From Jeotgalibaca arthritidis (GTDB lineage: Bacteria; Bacillota; Bacilli; Lactobacillales; Aerococcaceae): 64,000 bases of DNA. The notes under the pieces are model-generated. The model was not told the origin of the DNA. It searched no databases and worked only from the letters and a program-made list of their open reading frames with translations. The DNA lies in NCBI RefSeq assembly GCF_011100465.1, contig NZ_CP049740.1:1418001-1482000 (forward strand). Direction: 5' to 3'. The stretch's first letter is position 1. Every line of letters starts with the position of its first letter. The translations under genes were made by a program, and so were the position numbers. Positions 48,694 through 64,000 of this stretch are shown piece after piece.

Positions 48694-50076
48694 ATGACGA
48701 ACAACTATCAGGAACTTCCTGTTAAAAAAAATGAAAAGATTAAGGTAAACTTCGAAGATTTAACCTCTGAAGGCTTAGGCGTGGCGAAAGTTGACGGCTA
48801 CCCATTATTTGTGGTTGATGGTTTACCAGGCGAAACGGCAATTGTAAAGGTAACGAAATTAGGCAAATCATATGGCTTCGCTCGTATTGAAGAACGCTTA
48901 ACGACATCGCAAGATCGTATCCCAACGCGTGACGTGTTAGGAACACGTGTCGGAACGATGCCACTTCAACACTTGCGTTATGAAGCGCAACTGGCATTCA
49001 AGCAAAATATGGTAACGCAAGACTTCAAACGTATTGCAAAATTACCAGATATCGAAGTTCTACCAACAATCGGTATGAACGAGCCATGGGGCTACCGTAA
49101 CAAGGCACAAATTCCGGTTCGTGAAAAAGAAGGAAAACTGCAAACAGGTTTCTTCCGTAAAAATACTCACGAATTGATTCCAATGGAAAACTTCCATATT
49201 CAAGATCCAAAAATTGATGAAGCGATTGTAAAAGTTCGTGACATTCTGCAAGAATTCAATGTGAAAGCTTACGACGAACGTAAACATATCGGAAATATCC
49301 GTCACATTATGGTTCGCCGCGGTTATTACACTGGCGAAATGATGATTGTTTTAGTAACACGTACAGCGAAACTATTCCCTATGAGCAAAATTATTCCAGC
49401 TATCTTGGAAGCTTTGCCAGAAGTAGTCAGTATCGTTCAAAACGTTAACCCAAAACGAAGCAATGTGATTTTAGGCGAAGAAACGATTATCTTGCACGGC
49501 GAAGATCGTTACCATGACCAATTATTAGGCTTAACATTTGGTGTTAGTTCAAAATCTTTCTACCAAATTAACCCACTACAAACTGAAATCCTTTATAAGC
49601 TTGCACTAGAAGCCGCTCAACTAAGCGGTGAAGAAACAGTGATTGATGCTTATTGTGGTATTGGTACAATTTCATTGGCATTAGCTCAAAAAGCGAAACA
49701 AGTTTACGCAATGGAAATCGTTCCTGACGCGATTGAAGTAGCCAAAGAAAATGCAGCAAACAACCAAATTGACAATGTTGTCTTTGAAGTCGGTGCTGCA
49801 GAAGAAGTTATGCCGAAATGGGCAGAAGCAGGTATTAAAGCAGACGTGATCGTTGTTGATCCACCAAGAAAAGGATTGGATGCAGCCTTCATTGAAGCAG
49901 CCGTAGCTGTAAACCCTGAACGCATCGTTTATGTCAGCTGTAACCCAGCGACACTAGCTCGCGATTTAAGAATCCTAGCTGACAACGGCTATGAAGCAAC
50001 TCAAGCCCAACCAGTAGACTTGTTCCCACAAACACTACACGTTGAGACGGTAGTATTGCTAACTAGACAAAAATAA
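48694..50076 (+). CDS. rlmCD: 23S rRNA (uracil-C5)-methyltransferase, RlmCD/RumA family
   Basis: A 460-residue TrmA/RumA-type enzyme. The N-terminal TRAM domain (about 8-65) has LTSEGLGVAKVDGYPLFV; the SAM-binding block YCGIGTISLALAQ, VDPPRKGLD and the nucleophile motif SCNPATLARDL are intact. Gram-positive enzymes methylate U747 and/or U1939. The Cys cluster that holds a 4Fe-4S centre in E. coli RumA is gone: the region just before PLQHLRYEAQ has no Cys, and the whole protein has only two (YCGIG, SCNPA). Its own -10 TATAAT is at 48650-48655. The accessory region starts after it. Confidence 0.92.
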   Translation: MTNNYQELPVKKNEKIKVNFEDLTSEGLGVAKVDGYPLFVVDGLPGETAIVKVTKLGKSYGFARIEERLTTSQDRIPTRDVLGTRVGTMPLQHLRYEAQLAFKQNMVTQDFKRIAKLPDIEVLPTIGMNEPWGYRNKAQIPVREKEGKLQTGFFRKNTHELIPMENFHIQDPKIDEAIVKVRDILQEFNVKAYDERKHIGNIRHIMVRRGYYTGEMMIVLVTRTAKLFPMSKIIPAILEALPEVVSIVQNVNPKRSNVILGEETIILHGEDRYHDQLLGLTFGVSSKSFYQINPLQTEILYKLALEAAQLSGEETVIDAYCGIGTISLALAQKAKQVYAMEIVPDAIEVAKENAANNQIDNVVFEVGAAEEVMPKWAEAGIKADVIVVDPPRKGLDAAFIEAAVAVNPERIVYVSCNPATLARDLRILADNGYEATQAQPVDLFPQTLHVETVVLLTRQK

Positions 50077-50591: not shown

Positions 50592-50813
50592 ATGTCGATT
50601 TCTTATAATAAATTATGGAAATTATTGAGTGATTTAAATTTGAACAAAACCCAGCTTCGTGAAATATCTGGAGTTAGTCCCAACGTAATAGCTAAACTTG
50701 GGAAGAATGAATTAGTGTCGATGGAGTCGTTGCTAAAAATTGCGAAAGCGCTTAATGTTGATGCCAGCGAGATAATTAGCTCGAATGTAGATAGGGCGGA
50801 GGGTGACAAGTAA
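50592..50813 (+). CDS. Cro/C1-type HTH regulator of the YeeABC-like cassette
   Basis: A 73-residue single-domain XRE protein (HTH about 18-60: KTQLREISGVSPNVIAKLGKNELVSMESLLKIAKAL). Its stop codon directly abuts the methyltransferase start, so it is the first gene of the cassette. C-regulators of this size commonly control restriction-modification genes. The 67-residue protein at 56641-56844, at the far end of the cassette on the opposite strand, is clearly related. Confidence 0.88.
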   Translation: MSISYNKLWKLLSDLNLNKTQLREISGVSPNVIAKLGKNELVSMESLLKIAKALNVDASEIISSNVDRAEGDK

Positions 50814-53516
50814 ATGGCTAAGAATAAGGTATTAAATATCACAGAGATTGAAGATGGATTAAAGAAGTTAATCTCTGATCGCAGAAGCGGTGAATTCATC
50901 ACAAGTTTTCTAGGCTTTTATGATATTCCGAAAACTTCAATCACTCGTGCCCTCAAGAAGTTCAACGAAGGCGAGCCGTTTGTTATTAAGAACAAGCTCC
51001 ACTACGAAGAAATTGAAGGGGATGTCGTTGTAGCAATTGATGCTATCCAGCATGATATAGCCGATCAAAAATCCAAACCAAGATATATTATGGTCAACGA
51101 TTTTTCGGATATCGCAGCGATTGATACCAAAACTGGTGAGACTCTAAACATTCCGATTGCTGAGCTGCCAGCTAATGCTGATTTCTTCTTAGCCTGGAAC
51201 GGGATTGAGAAAGCGGATTATCAAGCGGAAAATCCAGCCGATCGGAAAGCTGCGGAACGTTTTGCTAAGTTATACGACGTTGTAGCTAAAGATAATCCGG
51301 ATGCTAATGAGCATGCCTTCAACCTATTCTTAATCCGAGTACTCTTCCTATTGTTTGCTGAGGATACGGGCATTATGAATAAAGGCTCATTCACTAATGT
51401 ACTAAAAACAAGAACTTCTGAAGATGGTTCGAATTTCAATGCAGTCATCAAAGACCTTTTCGAAGTTCTTGATATCAACCAATTAGCGAGAAATGGCAAA
51501 GAAGCCTGGTTGTTAGAGTTCCCTTATGTCAATGGGAAACTCTTCGGTGAGCCACACGTAGACTTAGTTTTCTCAAAAGTTTCAAGAGAACTATTAATTG
51601 AGGCCGGGGAGATGCTAAATTGGGATGAAATCAACCCAGATATCTTGGGAGCAATGATTCAATCAGTAGCTTCTGCAGAAGACCGCCATGTTGCTGGTAT
51701 GCACTATACGAGCGTGCCAAATATCATGAAGGTCATTAAGCCTTTGTTCCTAGATGAACTTACTGAAGCTTTTGATAGCCTCAAGACCAGATACGAAGGA
51801 AATGAACTCAAGGATATTACCGAGAAAACCCGAAAGGAAAATAAGAAGGGAATCATCAGTGAGCTTCATGCATTAATTGATAGGATTTCAAAAATCAAGT
51901 TTTTGGATCCTGCTAGCGGATCAGGAAATTTCTTAATCATCGCTTACAAAGAGATCCGACGACTTGAAATTAAGATACTTCAACTATTGGAAGAAATAGA
52001 AGATGATCCGAACATGCCGTTATCATCAATTCACTTGGGTAATTTCAACGGTATTGAGCTCGACGATTTTGCTCATGAAGTAGCTAAACTATCACTCTGG
52101 ATTGCTGAGCACCAGATGAATAAGGAACTCGAAGAAGCCTTGCCGGGTACGATTGCAGAATTGCTTCCACTGAAAGATGCAGGAAATATTCTATGTGCCA
52201 ATTCACTTAGAGTTGATTGGAATGAAGTTCTCCCACACAAAACTGACGATGAAATATATTTGATGGGGAATCCGCCATATTTGGGATCAAAACTCCAAAA
52301 TAAGGAACAGAAAGCAGATTTGGAATATGCTCTTGAGGGAAAGATAAACTCGAAAAGGGTTGATTATATAACCGGTTGGTTTTACAAAGGAACCAAGTTC
52401 ATTGCTAATTCCAGCAATAAGCTAGCTTTTGTCTCGACGAATTCTATTAATCAGGGTGAGCAAGTATCCTATATCTGGCCAACATTGCTTAAAAAATCAG
52501 ATATTAGTTTTGCATATAGTTCGTTTAAGTGGGGAAATAGTGCTAAAGGAAATGCAGGCGTAACTGTTGTGATAATAGGTTTGTGCGATGCGAAAAATAG
52601 TTTGCGGAAGTATCTATTTAATGAGAATGGTAGACTTGAGGTTTCGTATATAAATCCTTATCTAACTTCAGGAAAGATATCACTTGTGTCTACTCATAAT
52701 AAAAGCATAAGTGGTTTACCTGATATCATGTTCGGAAGCATGCCAAATGCCAATGGCTTATTTGATATTTCTCCCGAAGAATATAGCAAAATGGCAGCAA
52801 ACGAGACACGATTTGTAAAGAAAATTGTTGGTGGGAAAACCTTTATTGAGGGTACCATCAATTACACTTATTGGTTTGAAGACGATGAGTTTGCAGTTGC
52901 TAAGTCAAATCCAAAATTTGTTGCACTATTCAATTCGATAAAAGAATATAGAACGAAAAGCAATCGTGCTGCGACCAAAAAACTTGCAAATAGACCTTGG
53001 TCATTTGGTGAAGTTAGATATAAGAAAATGCCTGGGATAATTATACCTGCGACATCATCAGAGGCACGTGATTACGTACCAATGGGCGTGGTTGATGAGG
53101 ATACGATTGTAAACAATTCCGCATATGTAATCTACGGAGGTGAGATCTGGCTTCTAGGTCTCCTCGAATCTCGCATGCACATGGTTTGGTTGGAGTCTGT
53201 AGGAGGGAAACTTGAAACTCGTTATCGATATTCAGCTGGATTGGTTTATAACACCTTCCCGGTAAATAATCTTTCAACACAGCGCAAAAACGAAATCGCA
53301 CGTGTGATGACAGAAATTCTTGATTTACGTGAATACGAAGGCGGCACGTTAGCGGATTTGTATAATACCGCAACCATGCCTGAATCCCTCCGTAAGAAAC
53401 ATGAAGAGTTAGATGGAATTGTGGACCGTGCCTATCAACAACGAACATTTGATTCAGACGAGGAGCGACTTGCGATTTTGCTCAAACTTTATCAGGAGAT
53501 GACCAATAATGACTAG
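50814..53516 (+). CDS. MmeI/YeeA-like N6-adenine DNA methyltransferase
   Basis: A 900-residue class I SAM-dependent methyltransferase. The SAM motif is FLDPASGSGNF (about 363-373) and catalytic NPPY is at 486-489, so it is gamma-type m6A. It includes helical connector segments (RVLFLLFAEDTGIM) and a C-terminal recognition region (MHMVWLESVGGKLETRYRYSAGLVYNTFP), as in MmeI-family proteins. MmeI enzymes carry a D-EXK nuclease N-terminally; residues 1-120 here keep the PRYIMVNDFSDIAAID strand but I see no D...ExK core. This is the B. subtilis YeeA type, followed by yeeB- and yeeC-like genes. It probably marks self DNA. Confidence 0.88.
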   Translation: MAKNKVLNITEIEDGLKKLISDRRSGEFITSFLGFYDIPKTSITRALKKFNEGEPFVIKNKLHYEEIEGDVVVAIDAIQHDIADQKSKPRYIMVNDFSDIAAIDTKTGETLNIPIAELPANADFFLAWNGIEKADYQAENPADRKAAERFAKLYDVVAKDNPDANEHAFNLFLIRVLFLLFAEDTGIMNKGSFTNVLKTRTSEDGSNFNAVIKDLFEVLDINQLARNGKEAWLLEFPYVNGKLFGEPHVDLVFSKVSRELLIEAGEMLNWDEINPDILGAMIQSVASAEDRHVAGMHYTSVPNIMKVIKPLFLDELTEAFDSLKTRYEGNELKDITEKTRKENKKGIISELHALIDRISKIKFLDPASGSGNFLIIAYKEIRRLEIKILQLLEEIEDDPNMPLSSIHLGNFNGIELDDFAHEVAKLSLWIAEHQMNKELEEALPGTIAELLPLKDAGNILCANSLRVDWNEVLPHKTDDEIYLMGNPPYLGSKLQNKEQKADLEYALEGKINSKRVDYITGWFYKGTKFIANSSNKLAFVSTNSINQGEQVSYIWPTLLKKSDISFAYSSFKWGNSAKGNAGVTVVIIGLCDAKNSLRKYLFNENGRLEVSYINPYLTSGKISLVSTHNKSISGLPDIMFGSMPNANGLFDISPEEYSKMAANETRFVKKIVGGKTFIEGTINYTYWFEDDEFAVAKSNPKFVALFNSIKEYRTKSNRAATKKLANRPWSFGEVRYKKMPGIIIPATSSEARDYVPMGVVDEDTIVNNSAYVIYGGEIWLLGLLESRMHMVWLESVGGKLETRYRYSAGLVYNTFPVNNLSTQRKNEIARVMTEILDLREYEGGTLADLYNTATMPESLRKKHEELDGIVDRAYQQRTFDSDEERLAILLKLYQEMTNND

Positions 53517-55464
53517 TAACCTATTTGAAATTAATTTTGACAAGAACCAAACCAAGACGACGAATGATCTTGGTATGCGCGAGATGCAAGAACGCGTTTA
53601 TGAAAAACGTAATTCTACGTATCTTTTAGTTAAGGCTCCACCAGCTTCAGGGAAATCACGAGCGCTCATGTTTGTTGGATTAGATAAGCTTCATAATCAA
53701 GGTATTAAAAAGGTCATCATTGCCGTTCCAGAACGCTCAATTGGTAAGTCGTTTAGGGATACTGAGCTTACTAAATATGGCTTCTATTGGGATTGGAAGG
53801 TTAAACCAAGCAATAATCTGACCATCGGTGGTGGTGAGAAGTCTAAGGTTCAGCATTTTGTTCAGTTTATGAACTCAACTGACCCAAGTGACAATATCTT
53901 GATTGCGACCCATGCCACTCTTCGCTTTGCCTTTGAGGAATTGGATGATGCGACCTTTGATGATACTTTACTAGCTATTGATGAGTTTCATCATGTTAGC
54001 CGTGACGATAACTCGGTTTTGGGAAATGTTCTCCGTAGTATCATGGCGAATTCAACTGCCCATATCCTTGCTATGACTGGGTCGTATTTCCGTGGTGACT
54101 CTGTTCAAATTCTGGAACCAGCTGATGAAGATAAATTTGACAAAGTGACTTATTCCTACTATGAGCAACTCGAAGGCTATAAATATCTAAAATCCTTCGC
54201 AATGGGTTATAGTTTCTATCGCGGAAAATATACTGATGCTTTGGATAAAGTAATTGATGTCAATAAGAAATCCATTATCCATATTCCCAACGTTAATTCG
54301 GGTGAGTCTACTAAAGACAAGTATGCAGAAGTGGATGAAATACTTGATTTATTAACGGACGGTGGTAATATCACACAGAACGAGGACGGCATTTATGAAA
54401 TCGAACGTCCTGACGGAAAAAAACTATTAGTGGCCGACCTCGTGAATGAAGAAGGACGTGAAAAAGTCTCAGCCTATCTAGCAAGTATTACGGATGACAT
54501 CCAGGATCTTGATAAGTTAGATATCATTGTTGCTTTGGGAATGGCAAAAGAAGGCTTCGATTGGCCGTTTGCGGAATATGCATTGACAATTGGCTATCGT
54601 AACTCGTTAACTGAGGTGATTCAAATCATTGGTCGCGTTACGCGTGATAGCGCCAATAAGACTCATGCACAGTTTACAAACCTTATTGCGCAGCCAGATG
54701 CACAGGATGATGAAGTGCTCTTTGCGGTTAATAGCATCATGAAGGCAATTTCTGCTTCATTGCTTATGGAACAGGTGCTTGCACCAGTTTACAAGTTTAA
54801 ACCAAAAGATGATAAGCCAGACAAACCAGGGGATCTTTCAATTAGAGGATTGAAACCTGCTGATACTACGGAACGCACGAAAAAAATCATCGAAAATGAT
54901 ATGGAAGACTTGAAATCGAGTATTTTACAAAGCCAGGATATTCAAAACGCCATTGTTTCAGGTGCTGATGCGAAGATGATTAATAAGACGTTGATTCCAC
55001 GGGTCATCATTGAACGGTATCCTGATTTGACGAATGAAGAGTTAGAAACTGTTCGCCAACATACGGTTGCTGATATCAATATTGCTGCTGGGCGGACAAC
55101 AACCTCTGAAGACGGTAGTCGTGAAATTATCAAGATGGCCGACCGGTTCATTAATATCGATGAATTGAATATTGATTTAATTGATCAAGTGAATCCGTTC
55201 CAACGTGCTTACGAAGTAATTAGTAGCGATATCGACGCACCTACTCTTCGGTTCATTCAGGATTATTTGTCATTAAACAAGTATGATTTTACTGACGAAC
55301 AATTGGTTGCGGCTTATCAAGCTGCTAAGAAGTTCCGTGCAGAAAATGGTCGAAATCCTGATCGAAATAGTAAAGATGATGGTGAGAAATACTTGGCCTT
55401 TGCTTTGCTACGACTTGCTGAGATAAAACGTGAAAGGGAGGCAGCGAAAGAAGATGGCGAATAG
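53509..55464 (+). CDS. SF2 DEAD/DEAH-box helicase, YeeB-like
   Basis: A 651-residue helicase. Motif I APPASGKS (about 43-50), motif II DEFH (about 157-160), motif III-like MTGSYF, motif V/VI region AKEGFDWP and IQIIGRVTRD. Residues about 440-651 are a helical C-terminal domain including an acidic, lysine-rich linker (KPKDDKPDKPGD). It overlaps the methyltransferase gene by eight bases (SD AGGAG within it). In restriction-like systems such helicases translocate on unmodified DNA and bring it to a nuclease; the nuclease here is probably the GIY-YIG protein encoded next. Confidence 0.85.
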   Translation: MTSNLFEINFDKNQTKTTNDLGMREMQERVYEKRNSTYLLVKAPPASGKSRALMFVGLDKLHNQGIKKVIIAVPERSIGKSFRDTELTKYGFYWDWKVKPSNNLTIGGGEKSKVQHFVQFMNSTDPSDNILIATHATLRFAFEELDDATFDDTLLAIDEFHHVSRDDNSVLGNVLRSIMANSTAHILAMTGSYFRGDSVQILEPADEDKFDKVTYSYYEQLEGYKYLKSFAMGYSFYRGKYTDALDKVIDVNKKSIIHIPNVNSGESTKDKYAEVDEILDLLTDGGNITQNEDGIYEIERPDGKKLLVADLVNEEGREKVSAYLASITDDIQDLDKLDIIVALGMAKEGFDWPFAEYALTIGYRNSLTEVIQIIGRVTRDSANKTHAQFTNLIAQPDAQDDEVLFAVNSIMKAISASLLMEQVLAPVYKFKPKDDKPDKPGDLSIRGLKPADTTERTKKIIENDMEDLKSSILQSQDIQNAIVSGADAKMINKTLIPRVIIERYPDLTNEELETVRQHTVADINIAAGRTTTSEDGSREIIKMADRFINIDELNIDLIDQVNPFQRAYEVISSDIDAPTLRFIQDYLSLNKYDFTDEQLVAAYQAAKKFRAENGRNPDRNSKDDGEKYLAFALLRLAEIKREREAAKEDGE

Positions 55465-56590
55465 TTTAGATAGCATCTTTGAAGATGACGCTTTTGATGA
55501 TTTAACCAAGCAAGTTGAAAAAAAGAAAGTTGTAAAACAAGATCCTGAAGTTGCTAAATTTCAGGAGATTATAGACTTTGTGAATGAAAACGGACGAGAG
55601 CCGGAAAAAACACCTGAATGGTCTAGTGAACGTGCATTGTGGGCCCGTCTTAGCGGATTTCGAGGTAAAACTGAAAGAGCTGAGAAGGTTAAGAAGTATG
55701 ACACTTTAGGTTTATTGGAAAAAGAATTCGAGCCAGATGGAGAATTTCTTGCTGACTCAGTTGAAATAGATGACGAGTTGAATTTAGATGATATCTTAGG
55801 CTCAGATGATATGATTGATGATTTTTCAGACTTGTTGGATGTTTCCCGCTATCGTAGAACTGTGAATGCTGCAGATAAAATTGGTCGGAGAAAACATGCA
55901 AGTCACTTTGAGAAATATAAGAACTTATTCGATCAAGTTCATGCAGATATCGCATCTGGTAGACGAAAAATTATCCCGTTTGAACAGTATGATATTCATG
56001 AAAATAGATTCTACATCCAAAATGGTGTAATGATGTATATTGTTTCCATTTCAAAGGATACATTTATAGCTGATAATGGGAAAACAAATGCCAGAATGCA
56101 TGTTGTTTATGAGAACGGAACAGAGAACAAGAATTTGTTGCTGCAATCATTAGCTTCATCGCTTTATTCTACTGAACGTCATGGACGGATGGTGACAGAA
56201 CCGGTAGATGAAGAAACGTTGGCTGAAAGTTTTGGAGAAGAATTTACGACAGGTTATATCTATGTGCTGAAATCATTAAGTACTAATCCAGATATTAGTA
56301 AATGGAACAATCTGTATAAAATTGGATTCACTCGAAATGATGTGGAAAGCAGAATTGCTAATGCAGAAAATGACGTGACCTATTTAAATGCACCAGTGAG
56401 AGTTATGCTTTCTGCTGAGGTGCAAAATGTGAATGCTCAGCTTCTTGAGCGCACCCTACATCATGCATTCCAGGACAAACAAGTTGTCTTTCAGGATGGA
56501 AATTTCAAAAAAGCGACTGAATGGTACATGGTTCCATTGAATGATATTGAATCAAAAATCAATGAAGTAATCGCTGGATTACAAAAATAG
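55454..56590 (+). CDS. T5orf172/GIY-YIG nuclease, YeeC-like
   Basis: A 378-residue protein. Start at ATG 55454, in an overlap with the helicase gene (GTG 55430 is in frame but less likely). The N-terminal half is acidic and helical (about 1-130), with a repeated-like EEKK and DD-rich region similar to the helicase's C-terminal domain segment (both contain E-NGR-P). The C-terminus (about 275-370) is a T5orf172 GIY-YIG domain: GYIYVLKS, NLYKIGFTRNDVESRI, then LERTLHHAF. It is the only recognisable nuclease of the cassette. It is followed by a strong terminator. Confidence 0.85.
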   Translation: MANSLDSIFEDDAFDDLTKQVEKKKVVKQDPEVAKFQEIIDFVNENGREPEKTPEWSSERALWARLSGFRGKTERAEKVKKYDTLGLLEKEFEPDGEFLADSVEIDDELNLDDILGSDDMIDDFSDLLDVSRYRRTVNAADKIGRRKHASHFEKYKNLFDQVHADIASGRRKIIPFEQYDIHENRFYIQNGVMMYIVSISKDTFIADNGKTNARMHVVYENGTENKNLLLQSLASSLYSTERHGRMVTEPVDEETLAESFGEEFTTGYIYVLKSLSTNPDISKWNNLYKIGFTRNDVESRIANAENDVTYLNAPVRVMLSAEVQNVNAQLLERTLHHAFQDKQVVFQDGNFKKATEWYMVPLNDIESKINEVIAGLQK

Positions 56591-56596
56591 TGAAGT

Positions 56597-56635
56597 AAAA
56601 GGCACTGTATTCGATTATGAGTACAGTGCCTTTTT
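56597..56635. terminator. Bidirectional terminator closing the YeeABC-like cassette
   Basis: AAAAGGCACTGTA (56597-56609) / TACAGTGCCTTTTT (56622-56635), a 13-bp perfect stem between convergent genes. Confidence 0.9.
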
Positions 56636-56640
56636 GATAT

Positions 56641-56844
56641 TTAATCGCGAACGATTTCTACGATATCCGATAAATCACAATCAAGTGCTTCACAGATGCG
56701 AAGTAAGATATCTGTTGTTACATTTTCGCCTTTATTTAGTTTTGATAGTGTGGCTGAACTAATATCAGTCATTTTTCTGAGTTGTGCTTTATTCAGTCCT
56801 CTGTCGATTAGGAGCTTCCAAAGCGGATTGTAGCTAAACTTCAT
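56641..56844 (-). CDS. Small Cro/C1-type HTH regulator
   Basis: A 67-residue XRE protein (HTH about 16-55: KAQLRKMTDISSATLSKLNKGENVTTDILLRICEAL). It is the same size class and shares the frame Y-N-LWKLL-D--LNK-QLR with the regulator at 50592, so they are paralogues. Encoded 16 bases downstream of the ABC-3C-like ATPase gene on the same strand, with possible SD in GGAATG. It is thus the last gene of that operon and may be its autoregulator. Confidence 0.88.
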   Translation of the reverse strand: MKFSYNPLWKLLIDRGLNKAQLRKMTDISSATLSKLNKGENVTTDILLRICEALDCDLSDIVEIVRD

Positions 56845-56859
56845 GTAATCATTCCTGTT

Positions 56860-58698
56860 CTAGTTATAAATATCGTATAGATATCCATAGCGTCCATTGT
56901 TTTTATCTTCAGTGAAAACAATCTGATTTACTTGTTTATCATCATAGTTTAGCGCAGGCAAGTTCGTTGTGTTCTCAACGATGATAAGTTGCCCTTCGTT
57001 TTGATGATCCATAAAGTATTTGAAGAGTCCTTCTTTCATACTGTCATCGCCATCTTGTTTTTTTCGTTCGTCCAATCCCAGAAGGGGGGAATCGATAATG
57101 AACACAGAAGGTGTGTACTTAGCGTGATTATACAAGAGATGTCGATATGCCATTACCACTACTGAATTGATAAACGCTGTATATCCATGTCCATTTTCGG
57201 TCCATTTTAGATTTCCATTGATTTTGATGTCGAAAATATCCTTGGCGAAAAACGCGTTACGAAATTCATTAGGCTTATAATGCATATTACGTAACATCGA
57301 GTCCAGTAATTCAGTCATCTCTTTGTAAAACTCTGCATCAAATTTTTCTTTAGGTTTATAAAGGATACGTTCGTCTTCCGGCTCGTTCTCAATTTTTTCA
57401 AGATCACTTTTAAGTTTCTTTTGCATTTTTTCCATCGAGATGAGCTGTTGTTTAATATCTCTGTAAGTTTCGATTTTATTGATTCGATCCTTTAACGTCT
57501 CAGCTTTCGGCTTCAGTTCATCGTTGATTGAAGCATCAAGTGATTTCTTTCTTGATTTGAGATCATTAAGCTGTTCCATTAGCTCTTGCAGTTCAACTTC
57601 GGTATCATGAGATTCTTCCGTCAAATCTGATAATTGTGAGAGCAATGAATGTAATTCTGAACGTGCAGTATCAATGTAGGTTGTTTGAACAGGCTTACTT
57701 AAATCGCCATTACAGAAAGGACAGCTATGTGAAGCGTCGTGTTCATTATGATCATTTAATAATCGCTCACCATCTACGATTAGTGTTAGTCGTTCAATAT
57801 CGGATTGATATTGATAATGTAACTGTTTGTACCTATTCAAAAGTAGTTGAGTTTCATGAAGATACTGTTCCTTTTGATAAATCTCTTTTATTAAGCTTTT
57901 GCTGCTGGCTAGCGCATCATTGATTTGCTTTTCAATTGTTTCAAGTTCAGCGAACATTCCATCGACAATTTGTTGAAAATCATCAGAGGGCGCCTCAGGT
58001 AATTCTGATTTAGCCACTTCGTAGTTTTCATATAATTCAGAAAGGCTTGAATTGATGTAGTTAATCACCGAGTTCCGTCTAATTTTTTTATGCTCTTTTG
58101 TTTCGTTTTCTTCTGAGTTTGAAAAATCTGAACCGTATAGCAGAAGTAACAACGATGATAAAAAAGCTGTACGTTGTGTTGTTTCCCCAGGAAAAAGAAC
58201 AGAGGAACTGGTATTGACTCTATCTTGTGGAATTAAAGTGCTAGGCGCTAATGTCCGCCAAGTTAATTTTTGACGTTTGAAATCCTCATTCTTGATAATT
58301 TGATAATCATCATTGATTCCTAAAAGTCGTAACCAAAAATTGCTAATTGGATTTTTCCCAGTTCGTGCATTATATTTTTCATGATCTACATATTCACCTG
58401 AACTTGTTATTTTGGATACTATAATGGAGTTGCTGTCAAATTCACGTGTTAAGGCATATTTATCATTAGTCGATTGAATTATCAGTTCAACTTCACTGTA
58501 TCCTGTTGCATCAGTTGAAAAGGGAGCGGCGTCTTTTTTCGCGCCATAGAGAAAATCGATTGCCGTTACAATGCTAGTTTTTCCAGTATTTGAAGGACCA
58601 GAGATTATGTTTAGCCCCTTAGTGAATTTGACAGTTGCATCTTCACGATCTTTGCCTTTTATGGTAACACGTTCAATATAATAATTTTGCATTATCAT
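56860..58698 (-). CDS. ABC-3C-type AAA/SMC-like ATPase with CxxC hook
   Basis: A 612-residue RecF/Rad50-like ATPase. Walker A GPSNTGKT (34-41) is at the end of an N-terminal beta-rich lobe; long coiled-coil segments (about 245-320 and 340-440) flank a hook with CPFC (Cys326, Cys329), as in Rad50 zinc hooks; Walker B is FIIDSPLLGLDE (about 537-548). This ATPase, encoded with a small middle protein and a third protein, matches the architecture of ABC-three-component conflict systems. ATG overlaps the stop of the upstream gene. DNA-end or nucleic-acid sensing is a reasonable inference. Confidence 0.85.
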   Translation of the reverse strand: MIMQNYYIERVTIKGKDREDATVKFTKGLNIISGPSNTGKTSIVTAIDFLYGAKKDAAPFSTDATGYSEVELIIQSTNDKYALTREFDSNSIIVSKITSSGEYVDHEKYNARTGKNPISNFWLRLLGINDDYQIIKNEDFKRQKLTWRTLAPSTLIPQDRVNTSSSVLFPGETTQRTAFLSSLLLLLYGSDFSNSEENETKEHKKIRRNSVINYINSSLSELYENYEVAKSELPEAPSDDFQQIVDGMFAELETIEKQINDALASSKSLIKEIYQKEQYLHETQLLLNRYKQLHYQYQSDIERLTLIVDGERLLNDHNEHDASHSCPFCNGDLSKPVQTTYIDTARSELHSLLSQLSDLTEESHDTEVELQELMEQLNDLKSRKKSLDASINDELKPKAETLKDRINKIETYRDIKQQLISMEKMQKKLKSDLEKIENEPEDERILYKPKEKFDAEFYKEMTELLDSMLRNMHYKPNEFRNAFFAKDIFDIKINGNLKWTENGHGYTAFINSVVVMAYRHLLYNHAKYTPSVFIIDSPLLGLDERKKQDGDDSMKEGLFKYFMDHQNEGQLIIVENTTNLPALNYDDKQVNQIVFTEDKNNGRYGYLYDIYN

Positions 58699-59141
58699 TG
58701 CTCTCCTTTGAATTCCTTTGCGCGTTGGTTTATTTGTCGCAGAAGCTCAACATCACTTTTATCTTGAATGTATTTAACAGATTCGTCAGCTGTTTGTAAG
58801 TATTTTTCCGCATACACTGATATGAACTGTGGAATCAACTTAAGGCCGTCTTCTGATAAAGCATACTTAAAACCTTCTTTGCTTTGTGATGGCTGGATAA
58901 CATGTTGTAGCACAAGGTTTTTGACTGCATCTTTTACCAATTCACGTCGCGCAATGAATTCACTGAGTCTATAGCTGTTATCACCATTTAAGTTGTAATC
59001 AGAAATTTCAAAGTCGCGACCATACGTGGTAATGAAGTCTGTGATTAGAATTCTATCAGCGCTGACAGGCTCTTTAAATTCAGAGAGCAGTAACATGACT
59101 CGAACCGAAATTTCAAATGGAGTATTAAATAAACTATTCAT
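58695..59141 (-). CDS. ABC-3C-like middle component
   Basis: A 148-residue soluble protein, mostly helical, with a winged-helix-like C-terminal part (ELVKDAVKNLVLQHVIQPSQSKEGFKYALSEDGLKLI). Its place between the ATPase and the larger third gene, with a four-base overlap to the former (ATGA) and an eight-base overlap to the latter, is diagnostic for the middle component of ABC-3C systems. The N-terminus LFNTPFEISVRVMLLLSEF is similar to known middle components. Probably an adaptor between sensor ATPase and effector. Identification is by length, context and general resemblance. Confidence 0.68.
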   Translation of the reverse strand: MNSLFNTPFEISVRVMLLLSEFKEPVSADRILITDFITTYGRDFEISDYNLNGDNSYRLSEFIARRELVKDAVKNLVLQHVIQPSQSKEGFKYALSEDGLKLIPQFISVYAEKYLQTADESVKYIQDKSDVELLRQINQRAKEFKGEQ

Positions 59142-60084
59142 CTTCAGTCACCCATTTGATCTTTCCGTCATTAACCAGCATATGACAAATGCCTTTTTTA
59201 GCAGAATTTTGCAGCAATCCTGGTATAAACGATAAGATTGAACCATTTAATGTTATGACAGACGACTGCTGTAGAACGGCTTTAAGTCTCTCAACGCCAT
59301 CATCGTAATCTTCCTCGTATACTTCCTCGATGCCGTCGTACATATCTTCTTTCAAAGCTTCAAAGTGCTCAGTTCCTTCCTCTTGCGTAAAGTTATCACG
59401 GACCCCACGACGGATGCTTTCAGCTTTATAGTAATTTCTTCGCTGTCTCTTGAAATCCTTTAGCCGCGAATTTGGCAGGTCGTTTGTATGCTTGTATACT
59501 TCGCATCCATCAGCATCCGCGTATGCTGAAAAAAGAGCTATGACATACGTCATCTCCTCAGGTCTGATATCAAGGGGAACAGGCAAATTGTCAAAGAATC
59601 TCTTCACGTCATTATTAAAGGAGAAATCACCATTCGTGTTGATTCTTAAACTTGCAATTTCTATTTCGCTAAGCTTCGGCTTGGCCTTTTTTGTTTTGAC
59701 TTTGGTTTGGGAAGCAATCGAGGTAATTTCATCAATTAAAAGTCGTGCCATAATTTCAGCAACGTCTGTATCTTCTGGTATTACCACACCTTTAGTAATC
59801 AATTGTTGCTTAAGGACAGTTGGAGCATCATCTATAAGACGTTCATAAATAAAAGTCGTGCATTTATCAATGTAGAATTTTCCTGACACAAGGACAGCAT
59901 ATTCCTGTGTTAATTTGCGCTTCCCGTTGTAGATTCTTCGTAAGTTATCATCTGAAAATCCAAAAATTGTGGCTTCATCATCATTTGAAACGCTATCCAG
60001 CAACTCAATTAGAAATTTTTGTGGCTTTTTATATTCGCTTCCCATGAACGGATAAAGCGTTTGAGCAATTTCACTTATTTCCAA
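59134..60084 (-). CDS. ABC-3C-like third component with variable N-terminal domain
   Basis: A 316-residue protein starting at TTG 60084 (SD AAAGGAGGT seven bases upstream). Residues about 1-95 form an HTH-flavoured helical module (DDNLRRIYNGKRKLTQEYAVLVSGKFYID). A Lys-rich linker (about 130-140, KTKKAKPK) follows. The C-terminal part (about 165-316) has RPEEMTYVIALFSAYADADGCEVYKH and a C-terminal VKWVTEDE, as in the ABC-3C conserved C-terminal domain. In this system class the N-terminal module is the variable effector. It is the first gene of the operon, and its RBS can be sequestered in a hairpin. Confidence 0.68.
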   Translation of the reverse strand: MEISEIAQTLYPFMGSEYKKPQKFLIELLDSVSNDDEATIFGFSDDNLRRIYNGKRKLTQEYAVLVSGKFYIDKCTTFIYERLIDDAPTVLKQQLITKGVVIPEDTDVAEIMARLLIDEITSIASQTKVKTKKAKPKLSEIEIASLRINTNGDFSFNNDVKRFFDNLPVPLDIRPEEMTYVIALFSAYADADGCEVYKHTNDLPNSRLKDFKRQRRNYYKAESIRRGVRDNFTQEEGTEHFEALKEDMYDGIEEVYEEDYDDGVERLKAVLQQSSVITLNGSILSFIPGLLQNSAKKGICHMLVNDGKIKWVTEDE

Positions 60085-60091
60085 AACACAA

Positions 60092-60155
60092 CCTCCTTTG
60101 TTACGTCCGCCGTTGACCGCCGTTTGCCGCCGATGACTGACGAAAACAAGGGAGG
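60092..60155 (-). promoter_or_regulatory. RBS-sequestering leader hairpin of the ABC-3C-like operon
   Basis: On the minus strand CCTCCCTTGTT (60155-60145) can pair with AACAAAGGAGG (60102-60092), 10 of 11 positions, and the latter contains the SD of the operon's first gene. The 42-base loop holds three CGGCGG units. With the stem closed, the SD is hidden; opening would allow initiation at TTG 60084. This is inferred from complementarity; the energy was not computed. Confidence 0.65.
60107..60132. repeat. Triple CCGCCG direct repeat with 10-bp period
   Basis: CCGCCG occurs at 60107-60112, 60117-60122 and 60127-60132 (CGGCGG on the minus strand), each separated by four bases. The 10-bp period places each unit on the same face of the DNA helix; as RNA the six GG pairs might also form stacked G structures. 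GC richness is in strong contrast to the flanks. Confidence 0.8.
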
Positions 60156-60478
60156 CCTTTTTTTATAATTAAAACATAGTAGTTCAACTATTTAATTTTA
60201 TCATTTATGGTTCATAAACACTACATTATGTTTCAAGAAAGTGAACGAATTTATCTTAAAAGCGAATAGACCTACTAATTAAATATAACAATGCCTGAGT
60301 TGCAATAGGGCAAGGTTACAAATACTGAAAAGAACTGGTTACCCAGAAAATTTTTCAGATATTGTATACCTTACTTTATTGCGCTCTTTTTTCGTGATGG
60401 GGGACGGTGTACATATTGGCACGGTCCTTGTTTGTTTTCCTTGCTCTAAAACTCTTTCAGGCAAGAGAGAGGAATCTA
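60156..60478. other. Non-coding region between ABC-3C operon and phage replication block
   Basis: It is AT-rich, with no gene seen. Divergent promoters must lie here. Candidates such as TTGAAC ... TATAAA on the minus strand (about 60190-60160) have non-ideal spacing and TATACC near 60366 on the plus strand lacks a clear -35, so I do not assign any. It is a natural place for a control region of the element. Confidence 0.4.
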
Positions 60479-61096
60479 ATGAGTAAATTTAAGAAAACAC
60501 ACCAAAACGACCGCAACACTTATAAGTACGTGTTTGAGCGTACTGATGCCAATGGACGCATCCAAAAAGAAGTAGTTGAAATTCGTCCGGGAGAAGAAGG
60601 CGTCACTGAACTTAACATCCAGGAGTTGCACCGCGCTGACGACCGTGCGATTTACAACTTTTATAAAAATGCACGGCCCGAACGTACTGAAGCAGAAAAA
60701 GAGAAAATCAAGACTTGGAAAGAAAAGTTCCGTGAAGACTTCAACAACGAGCACGGCTATTATCCACTGGACGAATATGTGGATGGTGAAGCAAACGATT
60801 ACTTCAAACGTAACTACAATTTGTCTCTGAACGAATTTGATGATGTATGCGATGAAGGTGACAACCCAATTCAATCATTGGTTTACGATGCCTTTCAGAC
60901 TAATGAAGAAGATCCTCGTGTCGATCGATTGCGCGAAGTCGTGGCGCAATTATCACCGTACCATCAAGAAATCTATCACATGCTCGTCACTGATGAGATG
61001 TCTCAGACTGAAGTGGCAGCCAAACTTGGGAAACAAAAACAGTCCATCAATCGCACCTTCGGAATCATCAAAGACAAGATCAAAGAATTATTTTAG
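60479..61096 (+). CDS. Phage sigma-70 region 4-like regulator
   Basis: A 205-residue protein from ATG 60479 (SD GAGAGAGGA; the frame extends upstream but without SD). The N-terminal part is charged and of unknown fold; the C-terminus (about 150-205: LREVVAQLSPYHQEIYHMLVTDEMSQTEVAAKLGKQKQSINRTF) is a sigma-70 region 4 HTH. Proteins like it lead the DUF2800-DUF2815-polymerase block in many Firmicute prophages and probably regulate it, either as a sigma-like factor or as a DNA-binding activator. Confidence 0.8.
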   Translation: MSKFKKTHQNDRNTYKYVFERTDANGRIQKEVVEIRPGEEGVTELNIQELHRADDRAIYNFYKNARPERTEAEKEKIKTWKEKFREDFNNEHGYYPLDEYVDGEANDYFKRNYNLSLNEFDDVCDEGDNPIQSLVYDAFQTNEEDPRVDRLREVVAQLSPYHQEIYHMLVTDEMSQTEVAAKLGKQKQSINRTFGIIKDKIKELF

Positions 61097-61104
61097 AAAA
61101 ATTT

Positions 61105-61132
61105 ACAGGGAGAGTTTACTTTCCCTGTTTTA
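61105..61132 (+). terminator. Terminator after the sigma-like gene
   Basis: ACAGGGA (61105-61111) / TCCCTGT (61122-61128) hairpin followed by TTTTA. Weak T run; may be leaky. Confidence 0.6.
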
Positions 61133-61193
61133 CTTCGCCTGTATGGTGTAAGGGAGTGAATCCTAAACAAATAAAAATGAAGGAGGAGCCATC

Positions 61194-61397
61194 ATGAACC
61201 TAAAACACAAAGTTCGTATCAACGTGACAGATGAGGTCGGCAACAAACAAACTGTGCTGCAAGGTGGCGTGCGTTATTTACCAAGCAAGATTGCCCATTG
61301 GTTATTCGGAGAACGCACGTCGATTCTGGTGTTAACGCCAGGAGACTCGGAGTCAATTGAATCAATCGAAATCCATGAAGTTAAGAAGGGAGCGTAA
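61194..61397 (+). CDS. Small phage-type protein, unknown function
   Basis: A 67-residue protein, beta-rich (VRINVTDEVGNKQTVLQGGVRYLPSKIAHWLFGERTS...). SD GGAGGAG six bases before ATG 61194. It overlaps nothing upstream and is tightly followed by the next small gene, inside the replication block. No family recognised. Confidence 0.65.
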   Translation: MNLKHKVRINVTDEVGNKQTVLQGGVRYLPSKIAHWLFGERTSILVLTPGDSESIESIEIHEVKKGA

Positions 61398-61401
61398 TGG
61401 C

Positions 61402-61719
61402 GTGAGTAGAATGAAATTATTGCTTCAGGTTGTTGAGGATGTGCAAGCATTGGCCGATAGCTTACAGGAGTTGGCTGTGGCGATGCAAATCAACGAATCA
61501 GAACCGCAACAAGTTGAAACACCAGAACCACCAGTAAAAACAAAGCCGGAAGTCAAACAACCAACGCTTGAAGAAGTCCGCGGCTTGCTGGCTCGTAAAT
61601 CACAAGAAGGTAAATCATCTGAAGTGAAAGCACTGATTGAAAAGTATGGTGCCAGCCGCTTGAGTGAAATACCAAAAGAGAACTACGCTGCTTTGGTTGC
61701 GGATGCGGAGGGATTGTAA
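61402..61719 (+). CDS. Small phage-type protein with Pro-rich linker
   Basis: A 105-residue protein from GTG 61402 (SD AAGGGAG). An N-terminal helical part (KLLLQVVEDVQALADSLQELAVAM), an acidic Pro/Glu-rich linker (about 35-58) and a C-terminal helical segment (LEEVRGLLARKSQEGKSSEVKALIEKYGASRLSEI) are visible. Its C-terminal part is similar in type to small proteins always found upstream of DUF2800 genes. The stop directly abuts the DUF2800 start, so it is co-translated. Function unknown. Confidence 0.65.
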   Translation: MSRMKLLLQVVEDVQALADSLQELAVAMQINESEPQQVETPEPPVKTKPEVKQPTLEEVRGLLARKSQEGKSSEVKALIEKYGASRLSEIPKENYAALVADAEGL

Positions 61720-62862
61720 ATGCCAACACAACATGCCGTCTTATCGGCTTCATCAAGTAACCGCTGGATTCATTGTCCGCCAAGTGTTCGCTTGTCAGAG
61801 CACTTTGAAAACAAGTCGAGCCCGTATGCTCAACAAGGCACTGATGCTCATACCTTATGTGAGTACAAACTGAATAAGTTCATTGGTAATGACGTCACAG
61901 ACCCAACATCTACGCTTGAATTCTACGACGAGGAGATGGAGCAGTGTGCTGAAAGTTATGCGACCTTCGTGATGGAAGAAGTCGCTAAGGCGAAACAGAC
62001 AACAGTTGACCCTATTGTAATAGTAGAACAGCGGCTCGACTTCTCAAGGTACGTCCCAGACGGCTTTGGGACCGGCGACTGTCTCGTCATTGCGGATGGA
62101 ACGCTATCTGTTATTGACATGAAATACGGTCTAGGAATTTTGGTAGATGCGTATCAGAACCCACAGATGATGTGTTATGCCTTGGGAGCGTTGGAGCTTT
62201 TCGATGGTATTTATGACATTCAAGAAGTCAAGATGACCATTTTCCAGCCAAGGCGTGAGAATGTGAGTACGTACACACTGCTGAAAGAAGAATTACTTCA
62301 GTGGGCAAAAGATGTGTTGTCGCCTGCCGCAGATTTAGCTTTCAAAGGTGAGGGTGAGTACCAATGCGGGAAATGGTGTGGATTCTGTCCGGCGAAGAAT
62401 AGCTGTCGTGCACGAGCAGACCATAACTTGAAACTGGCGCAATATGAGTTCAAACCACCAGAGCTTCTTAGTGATGATGAAATCGAAGAAATCATCGGTA
62501 AAGTGGATGACCTGGTTTCTTGGAGTAACGATATCAAGGACTGTGCTTTGAAACTTGCACTCGGTGGCAAACAATGGACTCATCACAAATTAGTCGAGGG
62601 TCGCTCTACTCGTAAGTACTCTAATGACAATGATGTCGCTGCGGCGGTCATCAAGGCTGGATACGACCCATATGATAAAAAGTTACTTGGTGTCACAGAA
62701 ATGACGAAGGCACTCGGTAAAGAGAAATTCAATGAAATCTTGGGCGAATACATCATCAAACCAAAAGGCAAGCTGACGCTAGTCGATAGTTCAGATAAAC
62801 GACAAGCGGTCACAGTAAACAACTTAAACGAAGAATTTAAACCATTAACGGAGGAACAATAA
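61720..62862 (+). CDS. DUF2800 phage nuclease (RecB/Cas4-like)
   Basis: A 380-residue protein, full length for DUF2800. The N-terminus HAVLSASSSNRWIHCPPSVRLS leads into a PD-(D/E)XK-type region: GTGDCLVI and GTLSVIDMKYG, with D and D-x-K, then QNPQMMCYALG (Gln/Tyr motif). A Cys cluster CGKWCGFCPAKNSC, similar to the Fe-S site of Cas4 and AddB, lies at about 212-225. It is found just upstream of DUF2815 and a family-A polymerase in many phages, where it probably processes DNA ends for recombination or replication. Confidence 0.9.
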   Translation: MPTQHAVLSASSSNRWIHCPPSVRLSEHFENKSSPYAQQGTDAHTLCEYKLNKFIGNDVTDPTSTLEFYDEEMEQCAESYATFVMEEVAKAKQTTVDPIVIVEQRLDFSRYVPDGFGTGDCLVIADGTLSVIDMKYGLGILVDAYQNPQMMCYALGALELFDGIYDIQEVKMTIFQPRRENVSTYTLLKEELLQWAKDVLSPAADLAFKGEGEYQCGKWCGFCPAKNSCRARADHNLKLAQYEFKPPELLSDDEIEEIIGKVDDLVSWSNDIKDCALKLALGGKQWTHHKLVEGRSTRKYSNDNDVAAAVIKAGYDPYDKKLLGVTEMTKALGKEKFNEILGEYIIKPKGKLTLVDSSDKRQAVTVNNLNEEFKPLTEEQ

Positions 62863-62863
62863 T

Positions 62864-63406
62864 ATGTCTAAAACAAGCAAAGTAATCACTGGTACAAACA
62901 CACGTCTCTCATACTTCCACGGTTGGGAACGAGCATCCATCAACGGGGGCGCAGAGAAATATTCAACAGCAGTCTTGATTCCAAAATCAGATAAGAGAAC
63001 GATTGATACCATTGAAAAAGCAATCGATGCAGCAATCGAAGAGGGACTTGCGAAATTCGGTGGGAAGAAACCAAACAAAGCAGCAATCAAGCTGCCATTA
63101 CGTGATGGGGATATCGAACGCGACGATGAAGCATACCAAGGTCATTACTTCATTAATGCGAACTCAACCACTGCACCACAAATCGTGAATCAGCACGTTC
63201 AACCAATCTTGGATCGTTCACAAGTGTATAGTGGTTGCTACGCTCGTGTGTCGATTAATTTCTATGCCTTTAACGCAAATGGAAATCGCGGGGTAGCGGC
63301 AGGGCTTGGGAATATCCAGTTTGTACGTGACGGCGAACCACTCGGCTCACAAGTATCTGCAAGCGATGAGTTTGAAACCTTGGCGGATGATGATTTCTTG
63401 GCTTAA
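62864..63406 (+). CDS. DUF2815 phage single-stranded DNA-binding-like protein
   Basis: A 180-residue DUF2815 protein: VITGTNTRLSYFHGWERASINGGAEKYS near the N-terminus, a LIPKSDKRTIDTIEKAIDAAI helix, and ARVSINFYAFNANGNRGVAAGLGNIQFVRDGEPLG near the C-terminus. The family is thought to act as phage ssDNA-binding protein. It begins one base after the DUF2800 stop (SD GGAGGAAC). Acidic C-terminal tail as in SSB proteins (FETLADDDFLA). Confidence 0.88.
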   Translation: MSKTSKVITGTNTRLSYFHGWERASINGGAEKYSTAVLIPKSDKRTIDTIEKAIDAAIEEGLAKFGGKKPNKAAIKLPLRDGDIERDDEAYQGHYFINANSTTAPQIVNQHVQPILDRSQVYSGCYARVSINFYAFNANGNRGVAAGLGNIQFVRDGEPLGSQVSASDEFETLADDDFLA

Positions 63407-63466
63407 TCATTAAAACAAAAACGGCGATGGCAGAAGTGCTGTCGCCTGTTTGATTGGAGGAAGAAA

Positions 63467-64000
63467 ATGAAACATTTGTCATTGGATTTGGAAACGTATA
63501 GTAGTGTCGATTTATCGAAATGTGGTGTCTACAAATATTCAGAGTCCCCCGATTTTGAAATACTGCTATTTGCATACAGTGTAGATAGTGGTCCCGTCGA
63601 AGTGGTTGATCTGAAGATGGACGAAACTATCCCGGCTGAAATATTAACTTCGCTATCAGATGAAACAGTGATTAAACACGCCTTCAATGCGAGTTTTGAA
63701 CGTGTGTGTTTGTCACGCTTTCTGGGGTTGGATGGCTTTTTGAATCCACGAGGGTGGCAATGCACAATGGTGTGGGGTGCGACATTAGGTTTGCCGTTGT
63801 CACTTGTAGGAGTTGGTGCTGTTCTTGGTTTGGATAAACAAAAGCTCACAGAAGGAAAAGACCTCATCCGATACTTTTGCGTGCCATGCAATCCGACCAA
63901 AGTTAATGGTGGACGCACGAGGAACTTACCACACCATGCGCCAACTAAATGGTCAGCATTTAAGACATACAATGGTCGTGATGTGGAAGTTGAAATAGCT
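63467..64000 (+). CDS. Phage DNA polymerase, family A, N-terminal part
   Basis: The frame opens at ATG 63467 (GGAGG at 63456-63460) and runs off the window after 178 codons. The N-terminus is a 3'-5' exonuclease domain: Exo I motif LSLDLETYSSVDL (Asp/Glu), then a KHAFNASFER (Exo II-like, Asn-x3-Glu) block and a CTMVWGATLGLPLSL segment common to phage family-A polymerases encoded after DUF2815. The polymerase domain would follow outside the window. Confidence 0.88.
   Translation, partial: MKHLSLDLETYSSVDLSKCGVYKYSESPDFEILLFAYSVDSGPVEVVDLKMDETIPAEILTSLSDETVIKHAFNASFERVCLSRFLGLDGFLNPRGWQCTMVWGATLGLPLSLVGVGAVLGLDKQKLTEGKDLIRYFCVPCNPTKVNGGRTRNLPHHAPTKWSAFKTYNGRDVEVEIA

What the first reader, a model, noticed from the sequence alone, without database searches (positions are those of the whole stretch)
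50592..56635. YeeABC-like cassette: nuclease-free MmeI-type methyltransferase with helicase and separate GIY-YIG nuclease
The methyltransferase keeps SAM and NPPY motifs, but its N-terminal 120 residues show no D-ExK centre, unlike MmeI. A SF2 helicase and a T5orf172/GIY-YIG protein are translationally coupled behind it. This suggests that the restriction activity was moved to another polypeptide with a different nuclease fold and that a helicase links them. The order matches B. subtilis yeeA-yeeB-yeeC, whose mechanism is to my knowledge not well described.
Basis: partly seen in the sequence, partly recalled or inferred. Interest (0 to 1): 0.6.

Follow-up and report, generated by a model that had tools for sequence, protein, structure and literature searches.

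The report
YeeABC-type restriction-modification cassette
This is a three-gene DNA defence cassette of a kind already known from Bacillus subtilis, in which a DNA-marking enzyme has lost its own cutting centre and travels with a separate motor and a separate cutter; comparing relatives suggests that the marking enzyme chooses the DNA sequence for all three.

Summary
Window 50814-56590 encodes, in one tightly overlapping operon, an MmeI-like m6A methyltransferase without a PD-ExK centre, an SF2 helicase and a T5orf172/GIY-YIG protein with its conserved residues; a small HTH gene (50592-50813) precedes them. It is the DnmA(YeeA)-YeeB-YeeC cluster already in the literature, so a new member of a known kind (genome close to Enterococcus asini). 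New comparative evidence: (1) PD-ExK centre and YeeB linkage exclude each other (67 of 69 stand-alone relatives versus 1 of 103 linked ones); (2) one branch of the methyltransferase tree separates the groups; (3) among cassettes with at least 90% identical helicases the target recognition domain is typically only about 45% identical, so specificity is swapped while helicase and nuclease stay constant; (4) order holds across phyla and plasmids. Best reading: a multi-subunit, ATP-dependent restriction-modification system whose methyltransferase supplies specificity and whose cutting lies in the GIY-YIG protein. No biochemistry was possible; in B. subtilis the cassette did not restrict the phages or plasmid tested (PMC7261158, PMC9973331). 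A Lamassu (ABC-3C) system lies next to it.

The parts
50592..50813 (+). small Cro/C1-type HTH regulator (73 aa), stop codon directly before the methyltransferase ATG
   Evidence: sequence; NCBIfam VanU-like below cut-off; 86% identical gene at the same place in E. asini ATCC 700915, found within 900 nt upstream in very few other cassettes
50814..53516 (+). YeeA/DnmA-type MmeI-like DNA adenine methyltransferase, 900 aa, nuclease-free
   Evidence: Pfam MmeI_N, MmeI_hel, MmeI_Mtase, MmeI_TRD, MmeI_C; match to MmeI 5hr4 residues 102-904, E 1.7e-154
50838..51284 (+). MmeI_N-family domain without PD-ExK residues
   Evidence: E 1.7e-19; catalytic columns lost
52680..53270 (+). target recognition domain, the variable part
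   Evidence: Pfam MmeI_TRD; 44% identical to E. asini ATCC 700915 while YeeC is 100% identical
53509..55464 (+). YeeB-type SF2 helicase, 651 aa
   Evidence: Pfam DEAD/ResIII; motifs PPASGKS, DEFHH, TGSY, QIIGRVTRD conserved
55294..55434 (+). C-terminal module of YeeB shared with the YeeC N-terminus
   Evidence: hhalign, probability 94, P 1.2e-7
55454..56590 (+). YeeC-type T5orf172/GIY-YIG protein, 378 aa
   Evidence: Pfam T5orf172 and MUG113; G266, Y269, K288, G290, R299, E331, H335 (numbering of P0003) invariant in 55/55
55538..55678 (+). N-terminal module of YeeC shared with the YeeB C-terminus
   Evidence: exists as a separate 95-aa protein in a Providencia plasmid
56597..56635 (+). apparent intrinsic terminator hairpin at the end of the operon
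   Evidence: read directly from the sequence

Best explanation
A three-subunit restriction-modification system. The YeeA methyltransferase recognises an asymmetric site through its single target recognition domain and puts m6A on one strand (step shown experimentally for the B. subtilis homologue, inferred here). On unmodified sites the bound methyltransferase, whose own nuclease domain is dead, recruits YeeB, an SF2 ATPase that translocates or remodels DNA (inferred), and YeeC, whose GIY-YIG domain cuts (inferred). YeeB and YeeC carry no sequence choice of their own, so a new target domain changes marking and cutting together, as in Type I, ISP and MmeI enzymes. Translocation between two unmodified sites would solve the problem that one-strand marking leaves one daughter unmarked after replication (speculative).
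For: Helicase and GIY-YIG motifs intact and conserved. PD-ExK and YeeB mutually exclusive: 67/69 versus 1/103. One branch separates the two groups, SH-aLRT 97. Pairs with YeeB at least 90% identical: target domain median 45%, N domain 89%, YeeB 96%; 37 of 40 YeeB-linked pairs with an 85-99.5% identical backbone have a target domain under 60% identical, against 5 of 12 in stand-alone MmeI relatives, a known R-M family. Window versus E. asini ATCC 700915: target domain 44%, YeeB C-terminal half 99%, YeeC 100%, DNA mostly 97-100% from about 54450 to 61200. Order conserved across phyla and on conjugative plasmids; one 7.7-kb Pediococcus plasmid has only these three genes annotated. Loss of the methyltransferase is tolerated, as expected if it supplies the specificity: an IS3-like element interrupts it in E. 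asini ATCC 700915 while yeeB and yeeC stay open.
Against: B. subtilis deletions changed neither plasmid uptake nor three phages (PMC7261158, PMC9973331). No cleavage, complex or methylation motif was measured for this strain. Pairs used for target-domain swapping share lineages and are not all independent. The IS insertion could also silence the operon.
Confidence: 0.72

Rival explanations
1. A relic: the methyltransferase works as an orphan epigenetic regulator, and YeeB and YeeC no longer act (the view of the B. subtilis papers).
For: No restriction of plasmid uptake or of three phages, no site avoidance in phages, promoter effects of m6A in B. subtilis (PMC7261158, PMC9973331).
Against: Catalytic motifs of helicase and GIY-YIG protein stay conserved across phyla; linkage almost perfect; target domain swapped in close relatives, which an orphan regulator of fixed promoters should not show. 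The relic view may still hold for B. subtilis itself.
Confidence: 0.15
2. A BREX-like exclusion system: the methyltransferase marks self and the helicase-GIY-YIG pair blocks or nicks unmarked phage DNA without classical double-strand restriction.
For: Weak similarity of the methyltransferase to PglX and DrmMI; negative plasmid-uptake result in B. subtilis (PMC7261158).
Against: No PglZ or BrxC-like gene in the cassette or among its scanned neighbours; three genes alone make up a small plasmid's gene list.
Confidence: 0.1

Closest known systems
DnmA(YeeA)-YeeB-YeeC of Bacillus subtilis and homologues (PMC7261158 of 2020; PMC9973331 of 2023; they cite Morgan 2009, the latter also Makarova)
   Same: Gene order, nuclease-free MmeI-like methyltransferase, SF2 helicase, T5orf172/GIY-YIG protein
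   Different: Another specificity is likely (target domain differs); here preceded by an HTH gene and next to Lamassu and phage-like genes; PMC9973331 reports that B. subtilis YeeB and YeeC lack short C-terminal stretches present in V. crassostreae
MmeI, Type IIL (5hr4; PMC4833311)
   Same: All five Pfam domains, 516-bit aligned stretch over residues 82-898
   Different: D70-E80-K82 centre absent; nuclease and an ATPase are separate proteins
Type I and Type ISP restriction enzymes
   Same: Methyltransferase plus SF2 motor plus nuclease, target domain swapping, accessory genes between subunits
   Different: Nuclease is GIY-YIG and a separate chain, not an Mrr-like or HsdR PD-(D/E/Q)xK domain fused to the motor; target domain fused to the methyltransferase

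Membership tests
DnmA-YeeB-YeeC cassette | nuclease-free MmeI-like methyltransferase followed by YeeB-type helicase and T5orf172/GIY-YIG protein | tested here: met
DnmA-YeeB-YeeC cassette | conserved helicase motifs and GIY-YIG residues | tested here: met
DnmA-YeeB-YeeC cassette | m6A at a non-palindromic site | not testable with these tools
   needs a long-read methylome
Type IIL (MmeI) restriction-modification enzyme | MmeI methyltransferase, target and C-terminal domains | tested here: met
Type IIL (MmeI) restriction-modification enzyme | PD-ExK endonuclease centre in the same polypeptide | tested here: not met
Type I restriction-modification | HsdR with translocase and PD-(D/E)xK nuclease in one chain, separate HsdS | tested here: not met
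   helicase chain has no nuclease family match; target domain is fused to the methyltransferase
Type I restriction-modification | ATP-driven translocation and remote cleavage | not testable with these tools
   biochemistry needed
BREX | PglZ and BrxC with PglX | tested here: not met
   absent among the cassette and scanned neighbour proteins

The most novel reading that the evidence does not exclude
The whole DnmA-YeeB-YeeC family, not just a relic in B. subtilis, is a widespread and active ATP-dependent restriction-modification class of its own: specificity from a nuclease-dead MmeI relative with readily swapped target domains, a separate helicase and a GIY-YIG cutter joined by a shared docking module, with a slot for accessory defence genes as in Type I loci.
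Probability: 0.45. Interest if true: 0.6.

Novelty: new member of a known kind. Interest (0 to 1): 0.42.

Why it matters
Published tests in B. subtilis led to the view that this cluster is a dead remnant and its methyltransferase an orphan regulator. The swapping of target domains beside constant helicase and nuclease genes argues that elsewhere it is a working defence system with changeable specificity. That makes a question open since 2009 testable with defined pairs of cassettes. It also warns that PADLOC and RefSeq names (Type IIG, Type IIL MmeI) hide the missing nuclease and the two partner genes.

Tried and rejected
A simple D-x(8-12)-[DE]-x-K search over the N-terminal 150 residues gives scattered chance hits in 18 of 99 linked proteins, so only the aligned site was counted. 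Exact 14-mer repeats flanking the island (att sites) were not found. A fixed fourth gene was considered and rejected: the HTH gene is found upstream in very few cassettes, and genes between methyltransferase and helicase differ from locus to locus. Sequence searches of solved structures found nothing for YeeB or YeeC. Weak YeeB hits in the phylum-wide genome sample (21-24 bits) are only partial helicase matches. The Morgan 2009 paper is not held; it is cited only through PMC7261158 and PMC9973331.

Full report
What is there. Window 50592-56635 holds a compact rightward operon: a 73-aa HTH gene (50592-50813), a 900-aa methyltransferase (50814-53516), a 651-aa helicase (53509-55464) and a 378-aa T5orf172/GIY-YIG protein (55454-56590), closed by a hairpin followed by T's. 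Each of the three main genes overlaps the next or follows it directly. The window's YeeB is 97% identical to that of Enterococcus asini ATCC 700915, so the genome is probably of that species or near it.

Methyltransferase. Pfam finds all five MmeI domains, and phmmer aligns residues 82-898 to MmeI 5hr4. In MmeI the nuclease centre is D70, E80, K82 (PMC4833311). I aligned N-termini of relatives. Seven stand-alone MmeI-like proteins from plasmids, with no YeeB in the fetched flanks, all keep D...E-x-K. In the window the aligned stretch is FVIKNKLHYEEIEG. In the larger set the centre is present in 67 of 69 proteins without YeeB nearby and in 1 of 103 with YeeB; the single exception, L042, reads DVLWKKKLYFRIENK and may be chance. 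A tree of residues 167-450, which leaves out the N-domain and the target domain, separates the groups by one branch (SH-aLRT 97, quick method; a few long-branched methyltransferases, L055, L069, L108, L114, are placed uncertainly).

Helicase and nuclease. YeeB has SF2 motifs that are conserved in 130-135 of 135 relatives. YeeC has the GIY-YIG signature with G266, Y269, K288, G290, R299, E331 and H335 invariant in 55 of 55. About 47 residues near the end of YeeB resemble the N-terminal part of YeeC (F..ENGR.P....E..LA; probability 94, P 1.2e-7 in a single pairwise comparison). In a Providencia plasmid this part of YeeC is a separate 95-aa protein. A docking role is only inferred.

Distribution. 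The methyltransferase lies upstream in 68 of 68 and the GIY-YIG gene downstream in 74 of 75 loci with enough flank. Within the window's order, 7 other genomes among the 198 searched hold full-length YeeB. The cassette is frequent on plasmids (263 records with a YeeB match, 118 called conjugative), and a 7.7-kb Pediococcus plasmid has only the three genes annotated. It is nearly absent from the phage record collection (two partial hits), while IMG/VR contigs hold 43 matches.

Target domain swapping. Against E. asini ATCC 700915 the DNA is mostly 97-100% identical from about 54450 to 61200 (YeeB 3' part, YeeC, Lamassu, first phage-like genes), but 61-83% over most of the methyltransferase and 42-54% in the target domain; in protein terms target domain 44%, YeeB C-terminal half 99%, YeeC 100%. 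This is general: over 21 pairs with YeeB at least 90% identical the medians are YeeB 96, N domain 89, methyltransferase domain 75, target domain 45 and C domain 87, with the drop running from about residue 450-480 to about 810. With backbone identity 85-99.5%, 37 of 40 YeeB-linked pairs have a target domain under 60%, against 5 of 12 in stand-alone MmeI relatives. The pairs are not fully independent. If YeeB-YeeC had a sequence specificity of their own, changing that of the methyltransferase should be harmful; so either they take specificity from it or they do nothing. Their conserved motifs speak against the second.

A natural knockout. In E. asini ATCC 700915 an IS3-type transposase gene pair lies within the methyltransferase gene after roughly codon 30-37, with the HTH gene and the gene start before it, while yeeB and yeeC stay open. 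This fits a nuclease that cannot act without its specificity subunit, like the viable B. subtilis dnmA deletion, but silencing of the operon is an alternative.

Accessory slot. In 36 of 117 loci more than 250 nt separate methyltransferase and helicase, and the genes there differ: RhuM, Schlafen/AlbA, FRG, Fic, DUF1016/YhcG, ABC-type ATPase. From general knowledge, similar genes sit inside Type I hsd operons; the review PMC3874165 describes prrC in one.

Literature. PMC7261158: YeeA (DnmA) makes GACGm6AG; no effect on transformation; the authors cite Morgan 2009 for the lack of the nuclease motif and for a Type I-like idea. PMC9973331: yeeB and yeeC deletions do not change three phages; the cluster is conserved; conclusion of a non-functional relic, with V. 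crassostreae homologues cited as affecting phage sensitivity. My full-text searches found no other study of the cluster and no report of target-domain swapping in it.

Verdict. The cassette is a new member of a known kind. The most likely mechanism is methyltransferase-guided, helicase-dependent cutting by the GIY-YIG protein; only gene content, motif conservation, mutual exclusion and target-domain swapping are shown here, the rest is inference.

Noticed in passing
window 56860-60084 (-): Complete Lamassu/ABC-three-component system (LmuA with CTD6, LmuC = MC2, LmuB SMC-like ATPase) on the opposite strand, directly behind the cassette; two defence systems side by side.
   Followed up: partly
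window about 56659-56844 (-): A second small HTH protein, about 48% identical to the one that precedes the cassette, lies at the downstream end of the Lamassu genes.
   Followed up: partly
window 60407-64000 and L153 1-8287: Phage-like replication module (sigma-like regulator, exonuclease, annealing protein, DNA polymerase, primase/helicase, start of an SNF2-like gene); no flanking att repeat found by an exact 14-mer search.
   Followed up: partly
window 48694-50076; L015 1-459; L154 400-1806: The cassette sits behind an RlmD/RumA-type 23S rRNA methyltransferase gene in the window and behind a different RumA-type gene in E. asini ATCC 700915; another such gene lies beyond the phage-like region, which suggests an insertion site.
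   Followed up: partly
L015 668-1504: In E. asini ATCC 700915 another open reading frame that looks like a GIY-YIG protein (by eye) lies between the RumA-type gene and the cassette's HTH gene.
   Followed up: no
L153 8410-12933: 1507-aa open reading frame downstream of the phage-like genes, looking by eye like an ATPase with a DUF3883-like end; possibly a third defence gene.
   Followed up: no
L156 7001-9676, L157 7001-9700: In Ligilactobacillus salivarius plasmids the methyltransferase is annotated in pieces (167-aa N-terminal part apart from the rest) beside intact yeeB and yeeC; between the two plasmids the target domain is 55% and YeeB 99-100% identical.
   Followed up: partly
L055, L069, L108, L114: YeeB-linked methyltransferases that lie on very long branches; YeeB may have been paired with other methyltransferase lineages.
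   Followed up: no
L148 7736-8749, L102 5216-6004, L035 4429-5502: Genes of no Pfam family in the slot between methyltransferase and helicase.
   Followed up: no
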